Below are positions 2,118 to 10,090 of a stretch of 10,863 bases of DNA, piece after piece; the first letter of the stretch is position 1, and each line of letters starts with the position of its first letter. Source of the stretch: Thermococci archaeon (lineage in GTDB: Archaea; Hadarchaeota; B88-G9); assembly GCA_003660555.1 (NCBI GenBank), contig QMUK01000035.1:1-10863 (forward strand). Reading direction: 5' to 3'. The notes beneath the pieces are model-generated. The model was not told where the DNA came from. It saw nothing but the letters and a program-made list of their open reading frames with translations, and did not search any database. A program made the translations under genes and the position numbers.

Positions 2118-3182
2118 GTGGTCGAGATGTACAGGCAAATTGCCCTATTGCTCATAGGAATATTGATAGGCTCAACTTTTACGATGTATTTCCAAGGCAG
2201 AGATATAGAGAGCAGAGAACCGGAGAGAGTAATAAGAGTGGGGGCATTAAGGGCAATTTACCACGAGATCTACTTGATAAAGGGTCTAGGACTAGACGAG
2301 TACGTACCAGCTGAAGTGGAGGTGAAGATCTATCCACACGGAACAGCCATGATGACCGCCTTTCAAGCTGGAGAACTGGACATAATGTATGTAGGAACAG
2401 TTCCAGCCATGAATGCCTTCTCAGCTGGAGCTAAGATAAAAGTAATAGCAGGGACTAACCTAGGGGGAACTTCTCTAGTCATAAACAAATCCAGTGGTAT
2501 AAAGAGGCTCAAAGACATCAAAGGAAAGAAAATACTCGTTCCAGGGCCACATAATTTTCAAGACGTCGTCTTAAGAGCAATAATACTTCCAAGAGCCAAT
2601 TTAACAGAAGAAGACGTCATCATAGAGTATGAGGGAGATAAAGGAATGATGATTCACAGATTAGTGAGTGGAGAGGCAGACGCTGCCATAGTTTGGGAAC
2701 CCCACGTCACTAGAATGTTGTTCGACGAGAACATGAATAGAAGAGAGAACATAGAGGTACTAGTCCCTTGGAACGAGATAATAAGCGAAGACCCATCTAA
2801 AGGATATAGGTATTCCAGTAGTTGCCTAGTAGTAGGAGAGGAATTCCTAAGAGAGAACGAGGACTTAGTCAGAGCTTGGGTCTTAATTCATGCTTTAGCA
2901 ATAGAATATTGGAAGAGAAATCCGAAAAAAGCATCTGAAATAATCTCAAGGGAGATGGAGAGAATAGCACAGGTAAGTATATCACCTGAAATGGTCGAGG
3001 AGGCATTCAAGAGGGTGAGGTTAAGCTTAGATCCAGCCATCGACTCCATGAAATTGTTCTCGGAGAAAAGTCATGAACTTGGCTTCTCAAAGGAGAAGGT
3101 AGATGTAGAGAAGCTCTACTATCCAGAGATCCAAAGAGAAGTAGAGAGAATAATGAGGGAGCTATTCCATGAGCAACAATAA
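2118..3182 (+). CDS. ABC transporter substrate-binding protein, SsuA/NrtA/NMT1-like
   Basis: About 354 residues. An N-terminal hydrophobic segment (roughly residues 5-24) is followed by a periplasmic-binding-type II domain of the SsuA/TauA/NrtA group: IRVGALRAIYHEI at the first strand, FQAGELDIMYVG, and the second-lobe patterns LVSGEADAAIVWEPH and GKKILVPGP. The first segment has no cysteine, so this is not a lipoprotein. It is either anchored by that segment or cleaved after it. The protein captures a ligand outside the cell for the ATPase and permease that follow. Sulfonates, taurine, nitrate, cyanate and thiamine precursors are all transported by relatives, and the sequence does not choose among them. 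GTG 2118 and ATG 2127 both fit; ATG has the better site, GGTGGT at 2117-2122, four bases upstream. Confidence 0.85.
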   Translation: MVEMYRQIALLLIGILIGSTFTMYFQGRDIESREPERVIRVGALRAIYHEIYLIKGLGLDEYVPAEVEVKIYPHGTAMMTAFQAGELDIMYVGTVPAMNAFSAGAKIKVIAGTNLGGTSLVINKSSGIKRLKDIKGKKILVPGPHNFQDVVLRAIILPRANLTEEDVIIEYEGDKGMMIHRLVSGEADAAIVWEPHVTRMLFDENMNRRENIEVLVPWNEIISEDPSKGYRYSSSCLVVGEEFLRENEDLVRAWVLIHALAIEYWKRNPKKASEIISREMERIAQVSISPEMVEEAFKRVRLSLDPAIDSMKLFSEKSHELGFSKEKVDVEKLYYPEIQREVERIMRELFHEQQ

Positions 3183-3984
3183 ATTGGAATGCCTTTCAGT
3201 CTCTAAGCTTTATGAGAAGAACGGAAACAAGATATGGGCACTCAAGAATCTGAACTTAGAGGTAAAAGAGGGAGAATTCCTCGCAATAGTTGGACCTAGT
3301 GGTTGTGGGAAGAGTACGCTCCTCAAACTCATGGCCTCCCTCGAGAGACCTACTGAAGGGAAGATACTTTTAGACGGAAAGGAGCTAAGAGATCCAGGGC
3401 CAGAGAGAGCAATGGTTTTCCAGTACTTCTCCCTCTTCCCATGGTGCACTGTGTTAGAAAACGTGGAGTTCGGATTGAAGATGTTGAACGTAGAAGAGGA
3501 TGAGAGAAGGGAGAGAGCGCTTCACTACATCAAACTAGTGGGATTAGAGGGGTTTGAGGACTATTATCCAAGGCAACTGAGTGGGGGGATGAAACAGAGG
3601 GTAGCTCTAGCTAGAGCATTGGCAGTCAATCCAGAAGTTCTACTCATGGATGAACCCTTTGGCTCTTTGGACGCTCAGACGAGGAACTTCCTCCAAGCAG
3701 AACTACTCAAAATATGGGAGGAAGAAAAGAAGACAATAGTCTTCGTGACCCACAGCATAATCGAAGCAGTCTATCTAGGGGATAGGGTCGTACTAATGAC
3801 TTCCAGACCAGGTAGAGTAAAGGAAGTTTTCGAGATAGACATAGAAAGACCTAGAGACAAAGGATCTTCAGAATTCTCGAGAGTGAGAAGTGAGATACTA
3901 TCTAGTCTAAAGAAGGAAGTACTTAAGACAATCTCTTCCGAGTACTCTCTAGACTTAAAAGAGATAGCGGAGATGATACGTTGA
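3169..3984 (+). CDS. ABC transporter ATP-binding protein, SsuB/TauB/NrtD-like
   Basis: A 271-residue ATPase with every motif intact: Walker A GPSGCGKST at 42-50, Q-loop Q85 in VFQYFSLFPW, signature LSGGMKQR at 137-144, Walker B LLMDEP at 158-163, D-loop SLDAQTR, and switch H195 in FVTH. The QYFSLFPW segment and PFGSLDAQTR are typical of the nitrate/sulfonate/taurine transporter branch. It hydrolyses ATP on the cytoplasmic face to drive the permease encoded next. The ATG start lies inside the end of the binding-protein gene (14-bp overlap), with GAGG at 3155-3158 as a possible ribosome site. About 50 residues follow the core domain (from about 222), as is common in this branch. Confidence 0.93.
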   Translation: MSNNKLECLSVSKLYEKNGNKIWALKNLNLEVKEGEFLAIVGPSGCGKSTLLKLMASLERPTEGKILLDGKELRDPGPERAMVFQYFSLFPWCTVLENVEFGLKMLNVEEDERRERALHYIKLVGLEGFEDYYPRQLSGGMKQRVALARALAVNPEVLLMDEPFGSLDAQTRNFLQAELLKIWEEEKKTIVFVTHSIIEAVYLGDRVVLMTSRPGRVKEVFEIDIERPRDKGSSEFSRVRSEILSSLKKEVLKTISSEYSLDLKEIAEMIR

Positions 3985-4763
3985 ATGCTAGAACCATCTT
4001 TGTTTTTCTTGTATTTTTCGCATCTTGGGAACTAATTTCCAGGTCATTGGGAAATCCAATTTTTCCTCCACCATCCAAGGTATTCTTAGCTCTATTTGAT
4101 CTAATGTTGCCGAGAAACTTGGGATTCCTAAGCGCCCCAGTAGAGAGTGGGAAGTTAGTCCCATCTCTGCTTAACACGCTGGAGAGAGTTCTCATGGGTT
4201 TCTCTCTAGGTTCTCTAGCAGGATTTTCTTTAGGGATCTTGAATTTCAGATTCGAGTCTCTAGAAAAGACTATAGATCCTATAGTGAAAATCCTACATCC
4301 AATACCAGGAGTAAGTTGGATTCCAATATCTTTCCTCGCTTTCGGCGAGTCAGACCTAGCAGTGGTTTTTCCAGTAGTGATAGCGACTTTCTTCCCAATG
4401 TTAGTCAATACCACTTCCGGAATGAAGAGTGTCGAGGAAGATCTAATATTGGCAGCTAGGAACTTAGGGGCAAAGGGAATTAGATTCTATTCCCACGTGT
4501 TAATACCAGCTACTCTACCCTTTGTTATATCTGGGTTAAGGATATCTTGGTCGTACAGTTGGAGAACTAGTATAGCAGCGGAGATGGTTCTTTCTCTAGC
4601 CAAGGGAGGAGGACTGGGGATGCTCCACCTCACCTCTATGTATCATCTGGACGTGGCCTCTGCAATGGCGATAATGTTAACCATAGGCGTCACTGGAATG
4701 GTCCTAGATCACCTAGTTCTCGGATATCTAGAGAGGAGAACCCTGGAGAAATGGGAGGGATAA
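3981..4763 (+). CDS. ABC transporter permease, SsuC/TauC/NrtB-like
   Basis: A 260-residue integral membrane protein with about six hydrophobic segments (near residues 5-19, 69-87, 107-122, 126-143, 174-198 and 223-248). The cytoplasmic EAA-type coupling loop is clear around 153-182: EDLILAARNLGAKG followed by VLIPATLPFVISGLR. This is the binding-protein-dependent inner-membrane component of the SsuC/TauC/NrtB type and presumably works as a homodimer with the ATPase encoded upstream. The start is TTG and overlaps the ATPase stop codon as TTGA. GGAGATGAT at 3969-3977 is a good ribosome site. No in-frame ATG lies near it, so the TTG assignment is fairly secure. The 3' end overlaps the next gene by 13 bp. 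Confidence 0.92.
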   Translation: MNARTIFVFLVFFASWELISRSLGNPIFPPPSKVFLALFDLMLPRNLGFLSAPVESGKLVPSLLNTLERVLMGFSLGSLAGFSLGILNFRFESLEKTIDPIVKILHPIPGVSWIPISFLAFGESDLAVVFPVVIATFFPMLVNTTSGMKSVEEDLILAARNLGAKGIRFYSHVLIPATLPFVISGLRISWSYSWRTSIAAEMVLSLAKGGGLGMLHLTSMYHLDVASAMAIMLTIGVTGMVLDHLVLGYLERRTLEKWEG

Positions 4764-5245
4764 CCTTGTGGGACTTCTCCTATCCTAAGGAGATCAAAGT
4801 GTGCTTTTTCGAGACGAAATTGAATCCCAATGAGATATTAGCCAGATTGGAGGAGATGAGAAGGGAAGAGAAAAGTAAAGACAAAGCAATCCAAGTCTTC
4901 GACGCAGAAAACGTTTGTGGAGAGGAACATCTATATCACTCTACTAGACTAGCTGTTAAATCATTTAAAAGAGGAGGAATTTCTAGGAGTTTAGAAATGG
5001 AGATACTGTTGTTCGTAGCTGGAGAGAGGCAGATATCAAGAGCACTCGAAAAAGTAGGCGTGAAAGAGGGAACTAAAAGAGTGGCTGTAGTACTAGTGAA
5101 CTCCTCTGAAGAAGACGTGAAGTGGATCGGAGAGAGAATAAAGCCTAGTTGCAATCAAGAGAGAGTAAGGAGAATATTTGGTATAAAGGGGAGAGATGCA
5201 CTAATTGAAATATTAGAGAGATCAGCTCTGCTTCCTATAATTTAA
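4751..5245 (+). CDS. cgi121: KEOPS complex subunit Cgi121
   Basis: A 164-residue protein matching archaeal Cgi121 (TPRKB family), the accessory KEOPS subunit that binds tRNA and supports Bud32 during N6-threonylcarbamoyladenosine (t6A37) synthesis. Family features seen: VFDAENVCGEEHLYHSTRLA near 49-68, the helix with ISRSLEMEILLFVAGERQI at 77-95, ALEKVGVKEGTKRVAVVLVN at 98-117, and a short C-terminal helix after RRIFGIKG. The length is typical. The ATG at 4751 lies inside the permease gene. TTG at 4766 (residue 6) is a credible alternative because GGAGGG at 4753-4758 lies seven bases before it. Being the last gene of a nutrient transporter operon is an unusual place for it. No other KEOPS gene is in the window. 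Confidence 0.85.
   Translation: MGGITLWDFSYPKEIKVCFFETKLNPNEILARLEEMRREEKSKDKAIQVFDAENVCGEEHLYHSTRLAVKSFKRGGISRSLEMEILLFVAGERQISRALEKVGVKEGTKRVAVVLVNSSEEDVKWIGERIKPSCNQERVRRIFGIKGRDALIEILERSALLPII
4753..4758 (+). promoter_or_regulatory. Ribosome binding site suggesting a TTG start for cgi121
   Basis: GGAGGG is seven bases before the in-frame TTG at 4766 and lies inside the coding sequence if ATG 4751 is used. By strength and spacing it favours TTG 4766, which would remove five residues and leave only two bases between the permease stop and cgi121. Confidence 0.45.
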
Positions 5246-6235
5246 TCCTGCATTACTCAGAGCATCTTCTATTATCTCCTTGAATCTATCGTAGGGCCAA
5301 GCCCCCACTACCATGTAGGAAGTACCGTCAGGCAACACTATGAAGAAAGTCGGAGTACCAGAGACACCGAGTTCAGTCCCCTCCTTGAAGTCTTCCTCTA
5401 CTTCCTTAGAGTACCTCCCTTCCTCCAAGCACTTCCTGAATTCCTCTAAGTCTAACCCTATTTCTTTGGCATATCTCTCTATTGCCTCTTTGCCCAAGTA
5501 TTTGTCTAGGTTCCTCTCCCTGTAACCGGATAAGTTCCCTTCGAAGAGCTTGTCGTGCATTTCCCAGTATTTCCCTTGTTCCCCAGCACATTCCGCAGCC
5601 TCTGCAGTTATTCTGGAGTGAGGGTGAAAAGCTAAAGGGAAATCCTTGAAGTAATACTTGAGCTTTCCAGACTCTATGTACTCTTTTTCTATCTTTAGAA
5701 GAGTCTCCTTGAAGAATTTCCCACAATATGGACATTCATAGTCCTCGAAATCAACCAATGATAATTTCGCACTCTGATATCCCTTGTAGCTCCTCTCATC
5801 CAATTTAGGTGAGTAGAGCACTCTAATAGCAGGAGCAGGAATCCTCATTATTTGTTCATCATCTAGTAGGTATGCATCTCCTCTTTCAGAAAGGATTGGC
5901 TCAAGACTCGGAAACACATCCAATTCTTCTATCTCCTTTGGTAGTACTATTTGGGGGAGTACTCTCACACCGTACTTTTCCAAGAGTTCTCTTCCCTTAT
6001 CTGACCTATAGTCTACTCTCTCTACCGAGAGAGGAAGGTCGAATTTCTCTCTGAGAGAACTTATCACAATTTCCTCCCTGCATATCTTGCATTTAGAGTC
6101 ATAGATGAGCGTCGCATTTATTACTCTTTGCTTTACTTCCTCTGCAACCTCCTTACTAGTGCCCCCTTCATTTTCGGCTCCTATGCACCCAACGAATAAC
6201 AAGACCAATGTGATCAGTACCGCAACTTTGTTCAA
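5222..6235 (-). CDS. Lipoprotein with glutaredoxin-like and DsbA-like dithiol domains
   Basis: Residue numbers here count from the upstream in-frame ATG at 6253 (343 residues). A start at TTG 6235 (residue 7) is preferred: it gives MNKVAVLITLVLLFVGC, a classic lipoprotein signal ending at C23, and GGGGGGATCC precedes it. The exported part has two thioredoxin-fold units. The first (about 46-125) holds C55-K-I-C58 and a likely cis-proline at P100 in RVLPQIVLP. The second (about 160-335) is DsbA/DSBA-oxidoreductase-like, with C174-P-Y-C177 in FEDYECPYCGKFF, KDFPLAFHPHS, and SGTPTFF with cis-proline P301. It probably makes, breaks or relays disulfides in surface or secreted proteins. Its 3' end overlaps cgi121 by 24 bp. 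No membrane partner such as VKOR or CcdA is nearby. Confidence 0.82.
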   Translation of the reverse strand: MNKVAVLITLVLLFVGCIGAENEGGTSKEVAEEVKQRVINATLIYDSKCKICREEIVISSLREKFDLPLSVERVDYRSDKGRELLEKYGVRVLPQIVLPKEIEELDVFPSLEPILSERGDAYLLDDEQIMRIPAPAIRVLYSPKLDERSYKGYQSAKLSLVDFEDYECPYCGKFFKETLLKIEKEYIESGKLKYYFKDFPLAFHPHSRITAEAAECAGEQGKYWEMHDKLFEGNLSGYRERNLDKYLGKEAIERYAKEIGLDLEEFRKCLEEGRYSKEVEEDFKEGTELGVSGTPTFFIVLPDGTSYMVVGAWPYDRFKEIIEDALSNAGLNYRKQS

Positions 6236-6236
6236 C

Positions 6237-6246
6237 GGATCCCCCC
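6237..6246 (-). promoter_or_regulatory. Ribosome binding site for the dithiol lipoprotein
   Basis: On the - strand this reads GGGGGGATCC, one base before TTG 6235 and close to the archaeal complement GGAGGTGATCC. No such match precedes the ATG at 6253. Together with the signal peptide that begins at the TTG, this decides the start. Confidence 0.4.
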
Positions 6247-6278
6247 AAGGCATTTGACATTATACAGAAAAAGGTTTA

Positions 6279-6401: not shown

Positions 6402-7307
6402 TTGAGAGCAATACTCCTATGCGGAGGCTATGGAGAGGGATTGAGACCCCTCACTAACAGTAGACCTAAGGCTCTGATACCACTCGTTGGGAGAAACATA
6501 GTGGAGTGGACCATGGACTCTCTACCCCAAGAAGTAGAAGAGGTGATACTCTCAGTAGGTCCATTCGGAGACATGTTCTTCCAAGAATTCGAGAACTACG
6601 TGGAAAAGGACGTCTTAATAGTCAGGGAAGAGTATCCTCTTGGAACTGCTGGAGCTGTGAGAAACAGCACTAAGCTACTAAAAGACGGGACTTTCATGGT
6701 TCTCTCCGGAGATCTGATCTGTGAAATGGATCTCAGTAAATTATTGGACTTTCACTGGTCTAACGAATTTTCCATTACGGCAGCTCTTTCAATAGAGGGA
6801 AAAGACACATTTAAGTTCAAACTAGATGAAGATGGCAGGATATCGGAGATATCTGAGGCAAATGGATTCTTCCCAGTTGGAGCATTCGTCTTCGAACCAG
6901 AGGTTTTGGATATCTTACCCAGAATAGGGTCTCTTGAATCTGACGTGTTTCCAATACTGATTAGAACAGGAGAATTAGGAGGTCTACTTTTGAGTGGGAA
7001 GTATATCAGGATTAAGGGGTTAAACGATTATCTAGAGGCTCAAGAGCATCTCTTGAACTCAATGGGCTTAGAATCCTTAATAGAAAAAGACGTCTCGATT
7101 GGGAAAGACGTGGAAATAACAGGGTCTTACATTGCTGAGGGATGCGAAATATCCTCCAACACTAGTATAGAAAAATCAGCACTTCTGGGCTTCTGTAAAA
7201 TAGGAGAAGAATCCTCCATCTCGAAGTCGATAATTGGTGAAGGATCTGTTCTTCCACCAGGCTCTAGAGTGTTTAACAGGATAATTAGGGAGGAGAGTAG
7301 GGCTTGA
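6402..7307 (+). CDS. Sugar-phosphate nucleotidyltransferase-like protein, possibly inactive
   Basis: 301 residues from TTG 6402. An N-terminal nucleotidyltransferase fold (about 1-215) is followed by a left-handed beta-helix tail of hexapeptide type (about 229-290: VSIGKDVEI, GCEISSNTSIEKSALLG, GEGSVLPPGS). Family landmarks present: CGGYG at 7-11, PLTNSRPKALIP with K23, REEYPLGTAGAV at 75-86 and the metal-site D104 in LSGD. Active relatives make NDP-sugars from a sugar 1-phosphate and NTP. Two signature residues are changed: the arginine of GGxGxRL is G13 (GGYGEGLRPLT), and the aspartate expected before the DYLEA helix (the W-x-D-I-G pattern) is R203 (YIRIKGLNDYLEA). It may therefore be a regulatory paralogue, like eIF2B gamma/epsilon or GMPPA, or it may have altered catalysis. 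It is coupled to the downstream DUF89 gene. Confidence 0.85.
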   Translation: MRAILLCGGYGEGLRPLTNSRPKALIPLVGRNIVEWTMDSLPQEVEEVILSVGPFGDMFFQEFENYVEKDVLIVREEYPLGTAGAVRNSTKLLKDGTFMVLSGDLICEMDLSKLLDFHWSNEFSITAALSIEGKDTFKFKLDEDGRISEISEANGFFPVGAFVFEPEVLDILPRIGSLESDVFPILIRTGELGGLLLSGKYIRIKGLNDYLEAQEHLLNSMGLESLIEKDVSIGKDVEITGSYIAEGCEISSNTSIEKSALLGFCKIGEESSISKSIIGEGSVLPPGSRVFNRIIREESRA

Positions 7308-8164
7308 GGACGCATCCATATTGTCTGTATTGCGCTTTCAGACAAGCAGTTAAGGCGTCTTCGATAGCAACCAGTGATAGCGCTAGGAGATTAGGAGCAG
7401 TACTTCTCTCCCTATTAGAGATAGCGAAGTTCTCTAGGACTATGGACGAACCTCCAGCCAAATTAGGTACTAAAGTACACGAAATAGTCAAATTAGTAAC
7501 GGAAAACCCAGACCCATATGAGAAGGTAAAAGAGAAAAGCAATGAACTGGCTAGAGAGGTGGCCCGAAGTATAGAGGTAAATGGACTCATGGACGCAATA
7601 GAGCTGTCCATAGCTGGTAACGTAATAGATTACGTATCTCTAAGTGTTAATACGGAGCTAAAGAGAAGAATATTTGATGCGATGTCACAAGGGCTTTTCA
7701 TAGACGAAAGAAATAAGCTCATTGACAAATTGGAAAGAATAAATCAGAATGGAGAAATAATATATTTAGCAGATAACGCAGGGGAGATAGTTTTCGACGA
7801 AATCCTGATAGATTTCATCAAGGAAGAGTTCGATCTAAGGGTTATTCTAGTGGTGAGAGGAGGACCCTTGGTGAACGATGCGACCCTAAAGGATGTAGAG
7901 GAGATAGGCATGATCTCCAAAGTAGATGAAGTCATCACGACTGGGAAAGCCATGTCAGGAGTCCTTCTAGACGAAGTGCCGAGCGATCTCGTCAAAAGGA
8001 TATGGAAGTCTGATTTCATAATCAGTAAGGGGCAAGGAAACTTTGAAAGTATAGAACCACTATTCGGGAGGGGTAAAGTAGCCTTACTCCTCAGAGCCAA
8101 GTGTTCCCCAGTCGCTAGGGAGCTGGGGGTCCCCCTAGGATCAAACGTGGTGAAGATAGTGTAG
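7304..8164 (+). CDS. DUF89 family metal-dependent phosphatase (ARMT1-like)
   Basis: A 286-residue member of the DUF89/ARMT1-like family. Seen in order: an N-terminal CLYCAFRQA with C7 and C10, the hallmark LADNAGEIVFDE at 155-166, VRGGPLVNDAT at 184-194, SKGQGNFES at 241-249, and the C-terminal LLRAKCSPVARELGV. Characterised DUF89 proteins are metal-dependent phosphatases that act on sugar phosphates and related damaged metabolites. The short archaeal form with paired N-terminal cysteines is also known. The TTG start overlaps the upstream stop codon as TTGA, with GGGAGGAGAG at 7288-7297 as ribosome site, so translation is coupled to the nucleotidyltransferase-like gene. That suggests a shared sugar-phosphate substrate or pool, but the substrate itself is not visible. 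Confidence 0.88.
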   Translation: MRTHPYCLYCAFRQAVKASSIATSDSARRLGAVLLSLLEIAKFSRTMDEPPAKLGTKVHEIVKLVTENPDPYEKVKEKSNELAREVARSIEVNGLMDAIELSIAGNVIDYVSLSVNTELKRRIFDAMSQGLFIDERNKLIDKLERINQNGEIIYLADNAGEIVFDEILIDFIKEEFDLRVILVVRGGPLVNDATLKDVEEIGMISKVDEVITTGKAMSGVLLDEVPSDLVKRIWKSDFIISKGQGNFESIEPLFGRGKVALLLRAKCSPVARELGVPLGSNVVKIV

Positions 8165-8752: not shown

Positions 8753-10090
8753 ATGGGAGAGTCCTTGAAGGAAGTCTTCATGAAGAAGGTCTCATCTGGC
8801 GAGCTCAGAATCTGTGTCTTAGGACTTGGTCACGTAGGTCTCCCACTATCAGCTCTTCTTTCCGAGAAATATCGTGTCATAGGTTACGACATAAACAAAA
8901 AGAGGGTGGAAGACCTTAGAGCTGGAAAATCTACATCTCCAGATGTTACTAGGAGAGACTTGGCTAAGAAGAACTTGTACTTCACGAATAAAGAGGAAGA
9001 AATAGGCAATTGTGATGCATATTTCATTTGCGTCCCTACACCCCTGAAAGAGGACAAGGAGCCAGATTTGAGCTTCGTAATAGAAGCGACTAAAACTGTT
9101 TCTAAGTTTTTAGAGAAAGGAAATCTAGTGGTATTGGAGAGTACCACGTTTCCGGGAACTACAGAGGAGATAGTCAAACCCCTTCTAGAAGAGAGCTCCG
9201 GATTAACTGCTGGGAATGACTTCTGGCTAGCTTATTCTCCGGAGAGAATAGATCCAGGGAATAAGGAGTACCCATTGAGAGAAATACCGAAAATTGTTGG
9301 AGGAATAAATAGAGAAAGCGCAGAGATCACCAAAGCGGTGTTATCAAGGGTATTCAGGAAAATAGTTTTGGTCAGAGACACCAAGACGGCTGAGGCGACT
9401 AAGCTATTCGAAAACATATTTAGAGGAGTTAACATAGCTCTAGTGAATGAAATGGCTCTAATATTTGAAAGGATGGGTATAGACACTTGGGAAGTAATAA
9501 GGGCAGCCTCTACTAAACCTTTCGCATTCATGCCCCATTACCCTGGTCCGGGGGTAGGAGGGCACTGCATACCCCTAGACCCATATTATCTCTCCTACAA
9601 GGCCAAGAGGTTCGAATACGTCCCGAAGTTCATAGAGCTCAGTGGAGAAATAAACGAGTTCATGAAGATACACACGGTAAATCTAGTCAGGAAATCACTA
9701 AAGAGTCTGGGTTTGAATGAAATTAAGGGATCTAAGGTCTTAGTGCTAGGCCTATCCTATAAAAAGGGAGTGAAGGACACTAGGGAATCTCCTTCGAGAA
9801 AAGTGATTGAGGAACTTTCGAGAGAGGGGGCCATTATTAGAGTATATGACCCGATAGTTGAGGAAATAACCACCGAGAGAGGAACTTTCTATTCTGAACA
9901 ATCTCTCGAGGACGCAGTCCACTGGGCACAATGTATAGTCTTGATGACAGACCATGAAGAGTTCAAATCAATTTTAAAGATGGATCTGAGAAATAAGGCA
10001 ATAGTAGACTGCAGGAATTTGTTTGGAGAAGAAATCCCAAGAGGATGTGTCTACTTCTGTATAGGTAAACCTCACCCCCACCCACCTTGA
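8753..10090 (+). CDS. UDP-N-acetyl-sugar 6-dehydrogenase (WecC/WbpA family)
   Basis: A 445-residue nucleotide-sugar dehydrogenase. The N-terminal Rossmann domain has LGLGHVGLPLS (GxGxxG at 24-29) and VIGYDINKKRVEDL. Then come FICVPTPL, ESTTFPGTTEE, YSPERIDPGN, the central helix EATKLFENIFRGVNIA with K217 and N221, and the catalytic cysteine C272 in GPGVGGHCIPLDP. The C-terminal domain has LVLGLSYKKGVKDTRESPS. It oxidises the C6 hydroxyl of a UDP-N-acetylhexosamine (ManNAc or GlcNAc) to the uronic acid in two NAD-dependent steps, feeding surface glycan or N-glycan synthesis. ATG 8753 has no Shine-Dalgarno site (CACCTCC precedes it). TTG at residue 5 or ATG at residue 10 are alternatives, the latter after GAAGGAAG. 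The HPHPP tail is unusual but short. Confidence 0.92.
   Translation: MGESLKEVFMKKVSSGELRICVLGLGHVGLPLSALLSEKYRVIGYDINKKRVEDLRAGKSTSPDVTRRDLAKKNLYFTNKEEEIGNCDAYFICVPTPLKEDKEPDLSFVIEATKTVSKFLEKGNLVVLESTTFPGTTEEIVKPLLEESSGLTAGNDFWLAYSPERIDPGNKEYPLREIPKIVGGINRESAEITKAVLSRVFRKIVLVRDTKTAEATKLFENIFRGVNIALVNEMALIFERMGIDTWEVIRAASTKPFAFMPHYPGPGVGGHCIPLDPYYLSYKAKRFEYVPKFIELSGEINEFMKIHTVNLVRKSLKSLGLNEIKGSKVLVLGLSYKKGVKDTRESPSRKVIEELSREGAIIRVYDPIVEEITTERGTFYSEQSLEDAVHWAQCIVLMTDHEEFKSILKMDLRNKAIVDCRNLFGEEIPRGCVYFCIGKPHPHPP

What the first reader, a model, noticed from the sequence alone, without database searches (positions are those of the whole stretch)
6402..7307. Nucleotidyltransferase with two replaced signature residues
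In GGYGEGLRPLT the conserved arginine of GGxGxRL is Gly13 (GGA codon, one base from AGA). In YIRIKGLNDYLEA the metal-binding aspartate expected before the DYLEA helix is Arg203. The lysine in RPKALIP and the aspartate in LSGD remain. Loss of the triphosphate-binding Arg and the second metal ligand resembles regulatory homologues such as eIF2B gamma/epsilon and GMPPA, so this may be a non-catalytic sensor or partner subunit of another nucleotidyltransferase.
Basis: partly seen in the sequence, partly recalled or inferred. Interest (0 to 1): 0.6.

Follow-up and report, generated by a model that had tools for sequence, protein, structure and literature searches.

The report
Archaeal sugar-nucleotidyltransferase with lost active site
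One archaeal gene encodes a protein shaped like the enzymes that make activated sugars, but most of its catalytic residues are gone while the fold is kept, so it is probably a non-enzymatic helper or sensor, a kind of protein already known from other organisms.

Summary
The 301-aa protein at 6402-7307 (+) is an intact NTP_transferase (PF00483) with a short left-handed beta-helix. Arg13 is Gly and second-metal Asp203 is Arg, as reported. The EKP-motif Lys is also Ala153 (loop shortened), the sugar-site Asn is Pro158, and the Gly after the Asp is Lys205. Of seven catalytic positions only Lys23, Asp104 and Glu152 remain. None of 123 diverse homologues lacks more than two of the seven, and none lacks both Arg13 and Asp203. 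Other conserved positions are kept about as well as in other divergent members, codon usage is normal, and AlphaFold2 gives a confident GMPPB/VTC1-like fold. I read it as a functional, non-catalytic pseudo-nucleotidyltransferase. What it regulates is not shown: its genome has a canonical GlmU-type paralogue elsewhere, and the gene overlaps a DUF89 phosphatase gene. No orthologue was found in about 780 archaeal genomes, so conservation of the substitutions cannot be tested. Non-catalytic homologues (GalF, AGPase large subunit, GMPPA, eIF2B) are known: this is a singleton variant of a known kind. In passing: three other archaea carry adjacent NTase pairs with complementary active-site losses, which looks more interesting.

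The parts
6402..7307 (+). pseudo-nucleotidyltransferase gene, 301 aa (TTG start)
   Evidence: PF00483 66.4 bits against cut-off 21.2; AlphaFold2 mean pLDDT 95.7, pTM 0.91; best solved-structure match VTC1 GDP-mannose pyrophosphorylase, Z 35.8, rmsd 2.3 over 301 residues
6393..6401 (+). possible ribosome-binding stretch GGTGGTGAG just before the TTG start
   Evidence: sequence directly; inference only
6438..6440 (+). Gly13 (GGA) in place of the GGxGxR arginine
   Evidence: Arg in 97% of 123 homologues
6468..6470 (+). Lys23 (AAG), retained PK-motif lysine
6711..6713 (+). Asp104 (GAT), retained first metal ligand
   Evidence: Asp in 100% of 123 homologues
6858..6860 (+). Ala153 (GCA) in place of the EKP lysine; the loop after it is about 7 aa shorter than in the nearest relatives
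   Evidence: Lys in 98% of homologues; loop gap in alignment A2; corresponds to GMPPB Lys162
6873..6875 (+). Pro158 (CCA) in place of the Asn of the NAG motif
   Evidence: Asn in 92% of homologues
7008..7010 (+). Arg203 (AGG) in place of the second metal-binding Asp; Lys205 (7014-7016) replaces the following Gly
   Evidence: Asp and Gly each in 88% of homologues; corresponds to GMPPB Asp218
7068..7292 (+). short left-handed beta-helix domain (about residues 223-297)
   Evidence: Hexapep, LbH_EIF2B and Hexapep_GlmU matches; regular short strands in the model
7304..8164 (+). DUF89/ARMT1-like damage-control phosphatase gene; its TTG start overlaps the pseudo-NTase stop (TTGA)
   Evidence: PF01937 193 bits over the full profile; NF040824 208 bits, below its cut-off of 440; overlap

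Best explanation
The gene encodes a folded but catalytically dead sugar-1-phosphate nucleotidyltransferase homologue. Shown by sequence: four of seven catalytic positions are replaced and the EKP loop is shortened, while the fold, the PLGTAG loop, Lys23 and Asp104 are kept. Inferred: it can no longer hold the beta/gamma phosphates, the second metal and the sugar phosphate together, so it does not transfer nucleotidyl groups, though it may still bind a nucleotide or NDP-sugar. Inferred and weaker: it acts by protein contact, through its beta-helix, on a catalytic protein. The candidates are the canonical GlmU-type paralogue of the same genome and the DUF89 phosphatase encoded by the overlapping gene.
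For: Losses are concentrated in the active site: 4 of 7 catalytic positions against 4 of 22 other conserved positions; no other homologue of 123 lacks more than 2 of the 7. Not a frame or single-base error: four separate codons plus a loop deletion, with Arg203 AGG and Ala153 GCA several bases from Asp or Lys codons. The frame is open over 301 codons on a long branch (1.64 changes per site), with codon usage like its neighbours, which argues for selection on the protein. GMPPB/VTC1-like fold over the whole length. Loss of the Arg alone costs 86% of activity in H. pylori UDP-Glc PPase and 6000-fold in E. coli GlmU R18A; GalU T20M/R21H loses about 500-fold (PMC4643126). The genome keeps a canonical paralogue with all residues (L001, contig C78).
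Against: No orthologue, so no proof that the changes are conserved. No NTase gene is adjacent; the DUF89 pairing is not seen in the 16 phylum relatives that have DUF89. Recombinant GMPPB with K162R among three lysine changes stayed active (PMC11228364), so the EKP lysine alone is not decisive. The model's confidence rests on an alignment of relatives and does not by itself prove folding.
Confidence: 0.62

Rival explanations
1. It is still a catalytic nucleotidyltransferase that uses other residues, perhaps the GDP-mannose- or other NDP-sugar-forming enzyme of this organism.
For: Asp104, Lys23, Glu152 and the PLGTAG loop are kept. Only three PF00483 proteins were found in the 91%-complete genome, one of them of inositol-phosphate cytidylyltransferase type, so one might expect this gene to supply an NDP-sugar. 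Some eukaryotic UDP-Glc PPases lack the Arg (PMC4643126).
Against: Four catalytic positions and the loop are gone together. No Asp sits near position 203 (a group with W-x-[SA]-[IV]-D-T has an Asp two residues on, where the query has Lys) and no Lys lies in the shortened EKP loop.
Confidence: 0.15
2. It is a decaying gene without present function.
For: Singleton on a long branch, no orthologue in about 780 archaeal genomes.
Against: Open frame, codon usage equal to its neighbours, stop overlapping the start of an intact gene, losses concentrated in the active site while other conserved sites are kept.
Confidence: 0.1
3. It is a subunit or ligand-sensing regulator of the co-encoded DUF89 phosphatase rather than of another nucleotidyltransferase.
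For: Four-base overlap TTGA of the two genes suggests translational coupling; the DUF89 protein matches PF01937 over its full length.
Against: DUF89 genes of 16 other genomes of the phylum have no NTase in the 1.5 kb fetched on either side; no DUF89-NTase complex is known to me.
Confidence: 0.2

Closest known systems
GDP-mannose pyrophosphorylase GMPPB / plant VTC1 and archaeal GMP-like enzymes (nearest curated model NF052502)
   Same: Fold and domain order; Z 35.8 to VTC1 and 34.5 to a GMPPA/GMPPB-complex chain over the full length; nearest profile NF052502, 113 bits
   Different: Those enzymes keep Arg, EKP Lys, Asn and both metal Asps; the query scores far below the model's cut-off of 440 bits and lacks four catalytic residues
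GMPPA / KONJAC (non-catalytic partners of GMPPB / VTC1)
   Same: Non-catalytic NTase plus beta-helix protein in a genome with a canonical paralogue; [quoted passage not shown]
   Different: Query is 301 aa against 420 aa and has no long beta-helix insertion; it also lost sugar-phosphate-site residues; partnership untested
GalF (homologue of GalU) and potato AGPase large subunit
   Same: Loss of the same loop arginine (His in GalF, Lys in the potato large subunit) with strongly reduced activity (PMC4643126)
   Different: They belong to GalU- and GlgC-type branches; the query also lost the second-metal Asp position and the EKP Lys
eIF2B gamma and epsilon
   Same: NTase plus beta-helix architecture without sugar-nucleotide synthesis; Z about 27-31; Pfam LbH_EIF2B 43 bits, below its cut-off of 54
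   Different: No C-terminal exchange-factor domain; no translation-initiation context

Membership tests
NTP_transferase fold family (PF00483) | profile match over cut-off and family fold | tested here: met
   66.4 bits against 21.2; model against VTC1 Z 35.8
Catalytic sugar-1-phosphate nucleotidyltransferase | GGxGxR arginine | tested here: not met
   Gly13
Catalytic sugar-1-phosphate nucleotidyltransferase | PK-motif lysine | tested here: met
   Lys23
Catalytic sugar-1-phosphate nucleotidyltransferase | first metal Asp (GD) | tested here: met
   Asp104
Catalytic sugar-1-phosphate nucleotidyltransferase | EKP lysine and NAG asparagine (sugar-phosphate site) | tested here: not met
   Ala153, Pro158, shortened loop
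Catalytic sugar-1-phosphate nucleotidyltransferase | second metal Asp in W-x-D-x-G | tested here: not met
   YIRIK: Arg203 and Lys205; aligned to GMPPB Asp218
GMPPA-type regulatory subunit | active-site-deficient NTase plus beta-helix protein with a canonical paralogue in the genome | tested here: met
GMPPA-type regulatory subunit | long regulatory insertion in the beta-helix domain | tested here: not met
   301 aa against 420 aa; all residues align to catalytic chains; role of the insertion as cited in PMC9168903
GMPPA-type regulatory subunit | physical complex with the catalytic paralogue and product binding | not testable with these tools
   needs biochemistry or multimer prediction
eIF2B epsilon | C-terminal exchange-factor (HEAT) domain | tested here: not met
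   protein ends after the beta-helix at residue 301

The most novel reading that the evidence does not exclude
A dedicated archaeal pseudo-nucleotidyltransferase that has kept the nucleotide side of the pocket and lost the sugar and second-metal side, and that controls the co-encoded DUF89 phosphatase or the GlmU-type enzyme: a nucleotide- or NDP-sugar-responsive switch not described for archaea.
Probability: 0.2. Interest if true: 0.6.

Novelty: new variant of a known kind. Interest (0 to 1): 0.35.

Why it matters
Non-catalytic nucleotidyltransferases regulate sugar-nucleotide supply in eukaryotes and bacteria, and eIF2B shows how the fold was recruited for control of translation. A clear archaeal pseudo-enzyme would be an independent case of that recruitment. 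Its value is limited for now because it is a single sequence from one fragmentary genome.

Tried and rejected
Orthologue searches found nothing above 39% identity: 61 relatives, the whole held phylum of 28 genomes, 394 archaea and 389 genomes of another archaeal phylum (one search repeated almost the same set and added nothing), plus close-relative scans of genome contigs and viral contigs. The tree cannot place the query: its long branch meets another long branch (L114), so no origin is claimed. A sequence error was rejected because four separate codons and a loop deletion would all have to be wrong. A frameshift was rejected because homology continues end to end. A conserved gene pair with DUF89 was looked for in the phylum and not found. 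A nucleotide-sugar dehydrogenase lies near only a few homologues and was not counted as evidence. Residue-level alignments to GMPPA and eIF2B chains were not obtained; statements about them rest on cited papers or on my own knowledge.

Full report
What is there. The window is a 10.9-kb contig (C35) of a 1.30-Mb, 150-contig archaeal genome that is 91% complete and the only member of its family among the held genomes. Position 6402-7307 (+) is a 301-aa ORF starting with TTG. It matches PF00483 (66.4 bits, cut-off 21.2) followed by hexapeptide repeats; the nearest NCBIfam model is NF052502, mannose-1-phosphate guanylyltransferase (113 bits, far under its cut-off of 440). Its stop overlaps the TTG start of a DUF89/ARMT1-like phosphatase gene (TTGA).

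Check of the observation. Alignment with archaeal relatives confirmed Gly13 and Arg203. It also showed losses not reported: the EKP lysine is Ala153 and the loop behind it is about 7 residues shorter, the Asn of NAG is Pro158, the Gly of W-x-D-x-G is Lys205 and the W is Tyr201. By a profile alignment to human GMPPB, Ala153 corresponds to Lys162 and Arg203 to Asp218; Lys162 is cited as part of the GMPPB catalytic centre (PMC11228364). Lys23, Asp104 and Glu152 remain.

Is it more than chance? In 124 sequences dereplicated at 85%, the query misses 4 of 7 catalytic residues. Three homologues miss 2, 29 miss 1 and 91 miss none. At the other 22 conserved columns the query departs at 4, a number reached or exceeded by 29 of 123 homologues. 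The decay is concentrated in the active site. The best-scoring relatives (L062 at 39% identity, L064, L036, L061) keep every residue; in the tree they sit with Thermoplasmatota sequences.

Is it a real, functional gene? The frame is open, its codon statistics equal those of its neighbours (mean log frequency -3.87 in frame against -4.20 and -4.31 in the other frames), and AlphaFold2 on an alignment of 56 sequences gives mean pLDDT 95.7 and pTM 0.91. The whole chain superposes on plant VTC1 (Z 35.8, rmsd 2.3), on chains of the GMPPA/GMPPB complex (34.5), on eIF2B (about 27-31) and on archaeal ST0452 (29.9). Together this supports a maintained protein with a lost active site; the model's confidence alone would not.

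How it most likely works. Shown: the selective loss of residues. [quoted passage not shown] Inferred: with the second metal ligand and the sugar-phosphate lysine also gone, there is no catalysis. Inferred, weaker: because the PLGTAG loop, Lys23 and Asp104 persist, a nucleotide may still bind. Speculative: the protein works through contacts of its beta-helix with a catalytic protein. The genome holds a canonical GlmU-type enzyme cut by a contig end (C78, TIGR03992 at 306 bits) and an inositol-phosphate cytidylyltransferase-type protein (C17), one phosphomannomutase/phosphoglucomutase hit and one NDP-sugar dehydratase/epimerase hit. The DUF89 phosphatase of the overlapping gene is the other candidate partner, but the 16 other genomes of the phylum with DUF89 show no NTase beside it.

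Comparison with known kinds. It works like the non-catalytic members GalF, AGPase large subunit, GMPPA/KONJAC and eIF2B gamma/epsilon, but it is not shown to belong to any of those families: it lacks the GMPPA beta-helix insertion and the eIF2B exchange domain, and its pattern of losses differs.

A related finding elsewhere. Three other archaeal genomes (L055, L060, L021) carry two adjacent NTase genes with complementary losses. One lost GGxGxR and PK (CAAKEESLYPFTESKPTAL) but keeps EKP and WIDIG; its neighbour keeps GxGTR and PK but has W-x-PCSYPW in place of W-x-D-x-G. The pattern is the same in all three genomes. This is conserved, unlike the window gene, and is the better place to look for an archaeal two-subunit NTase.

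Limits. No orthologue of the window protein was found in the relatives and phylum sets, in 394 archaea or in 389 genomes of another archaeal phylum, nor in genome contigs or viral contigs with a close-relative search.

Noticed in passing
L055:70-2373, L060:1498-3861, L021:1498-3844 (three other archaeal genomes): Two adjacent same-strand NTase genes with complementary active-site losses, conserved in all three genomes: one lost GGxGxR and PK but keeps EKP and WIDIG, the other keeps GxGTR and PK but has W-x-PCSYPW instead of W-x-D-x-G. The degenerate ones are 53-71% identical to each other, the neighbours about 59%. Possibly a two-subunit NTase.
   Followed up: partly
L024, L028, L032, L115, L120, L133, L143, L148, L050, L017, L020: A group of archaeal NTases has W-x-[SA]-[IV]-D-[TS] in place of W-x-D-x-G: the Asp seems shifted by two residues while Arg and EKP are kept.
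   Followed up: no
window 7304-8164: DUF89 damage-control phosphatase gene overlapping the pseudo-NTase gene; 17 of 28 genomes of the phylum (this one included) have a homologue, none of the others with an NTase in the fetched flanks.
   Followed up: partly
window 8753-10090: Nucleotide-sugar dehydrogenase (TIGR03026, 430 bits; near archaeal UDP-ManNAc dehydrogenase) downstream, hinting at glycan synthesis nearby.
   Followed up: no
window 2118-5245: Apparent substrate-binding protein, ATPase and permease genes of one ABC importer, overlapping head to tail, followed by an overlapping Cgi121 (KEOPS subunit) gene at 4751-5245.
   Followed up: no
window 5222-6253 (-): DsbA-like thioredoxin-fold protein near the Rcas_1661 (seleno)lipoprotein family, with a second thioredoxin-like N-terminal part.
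   Followed up: no
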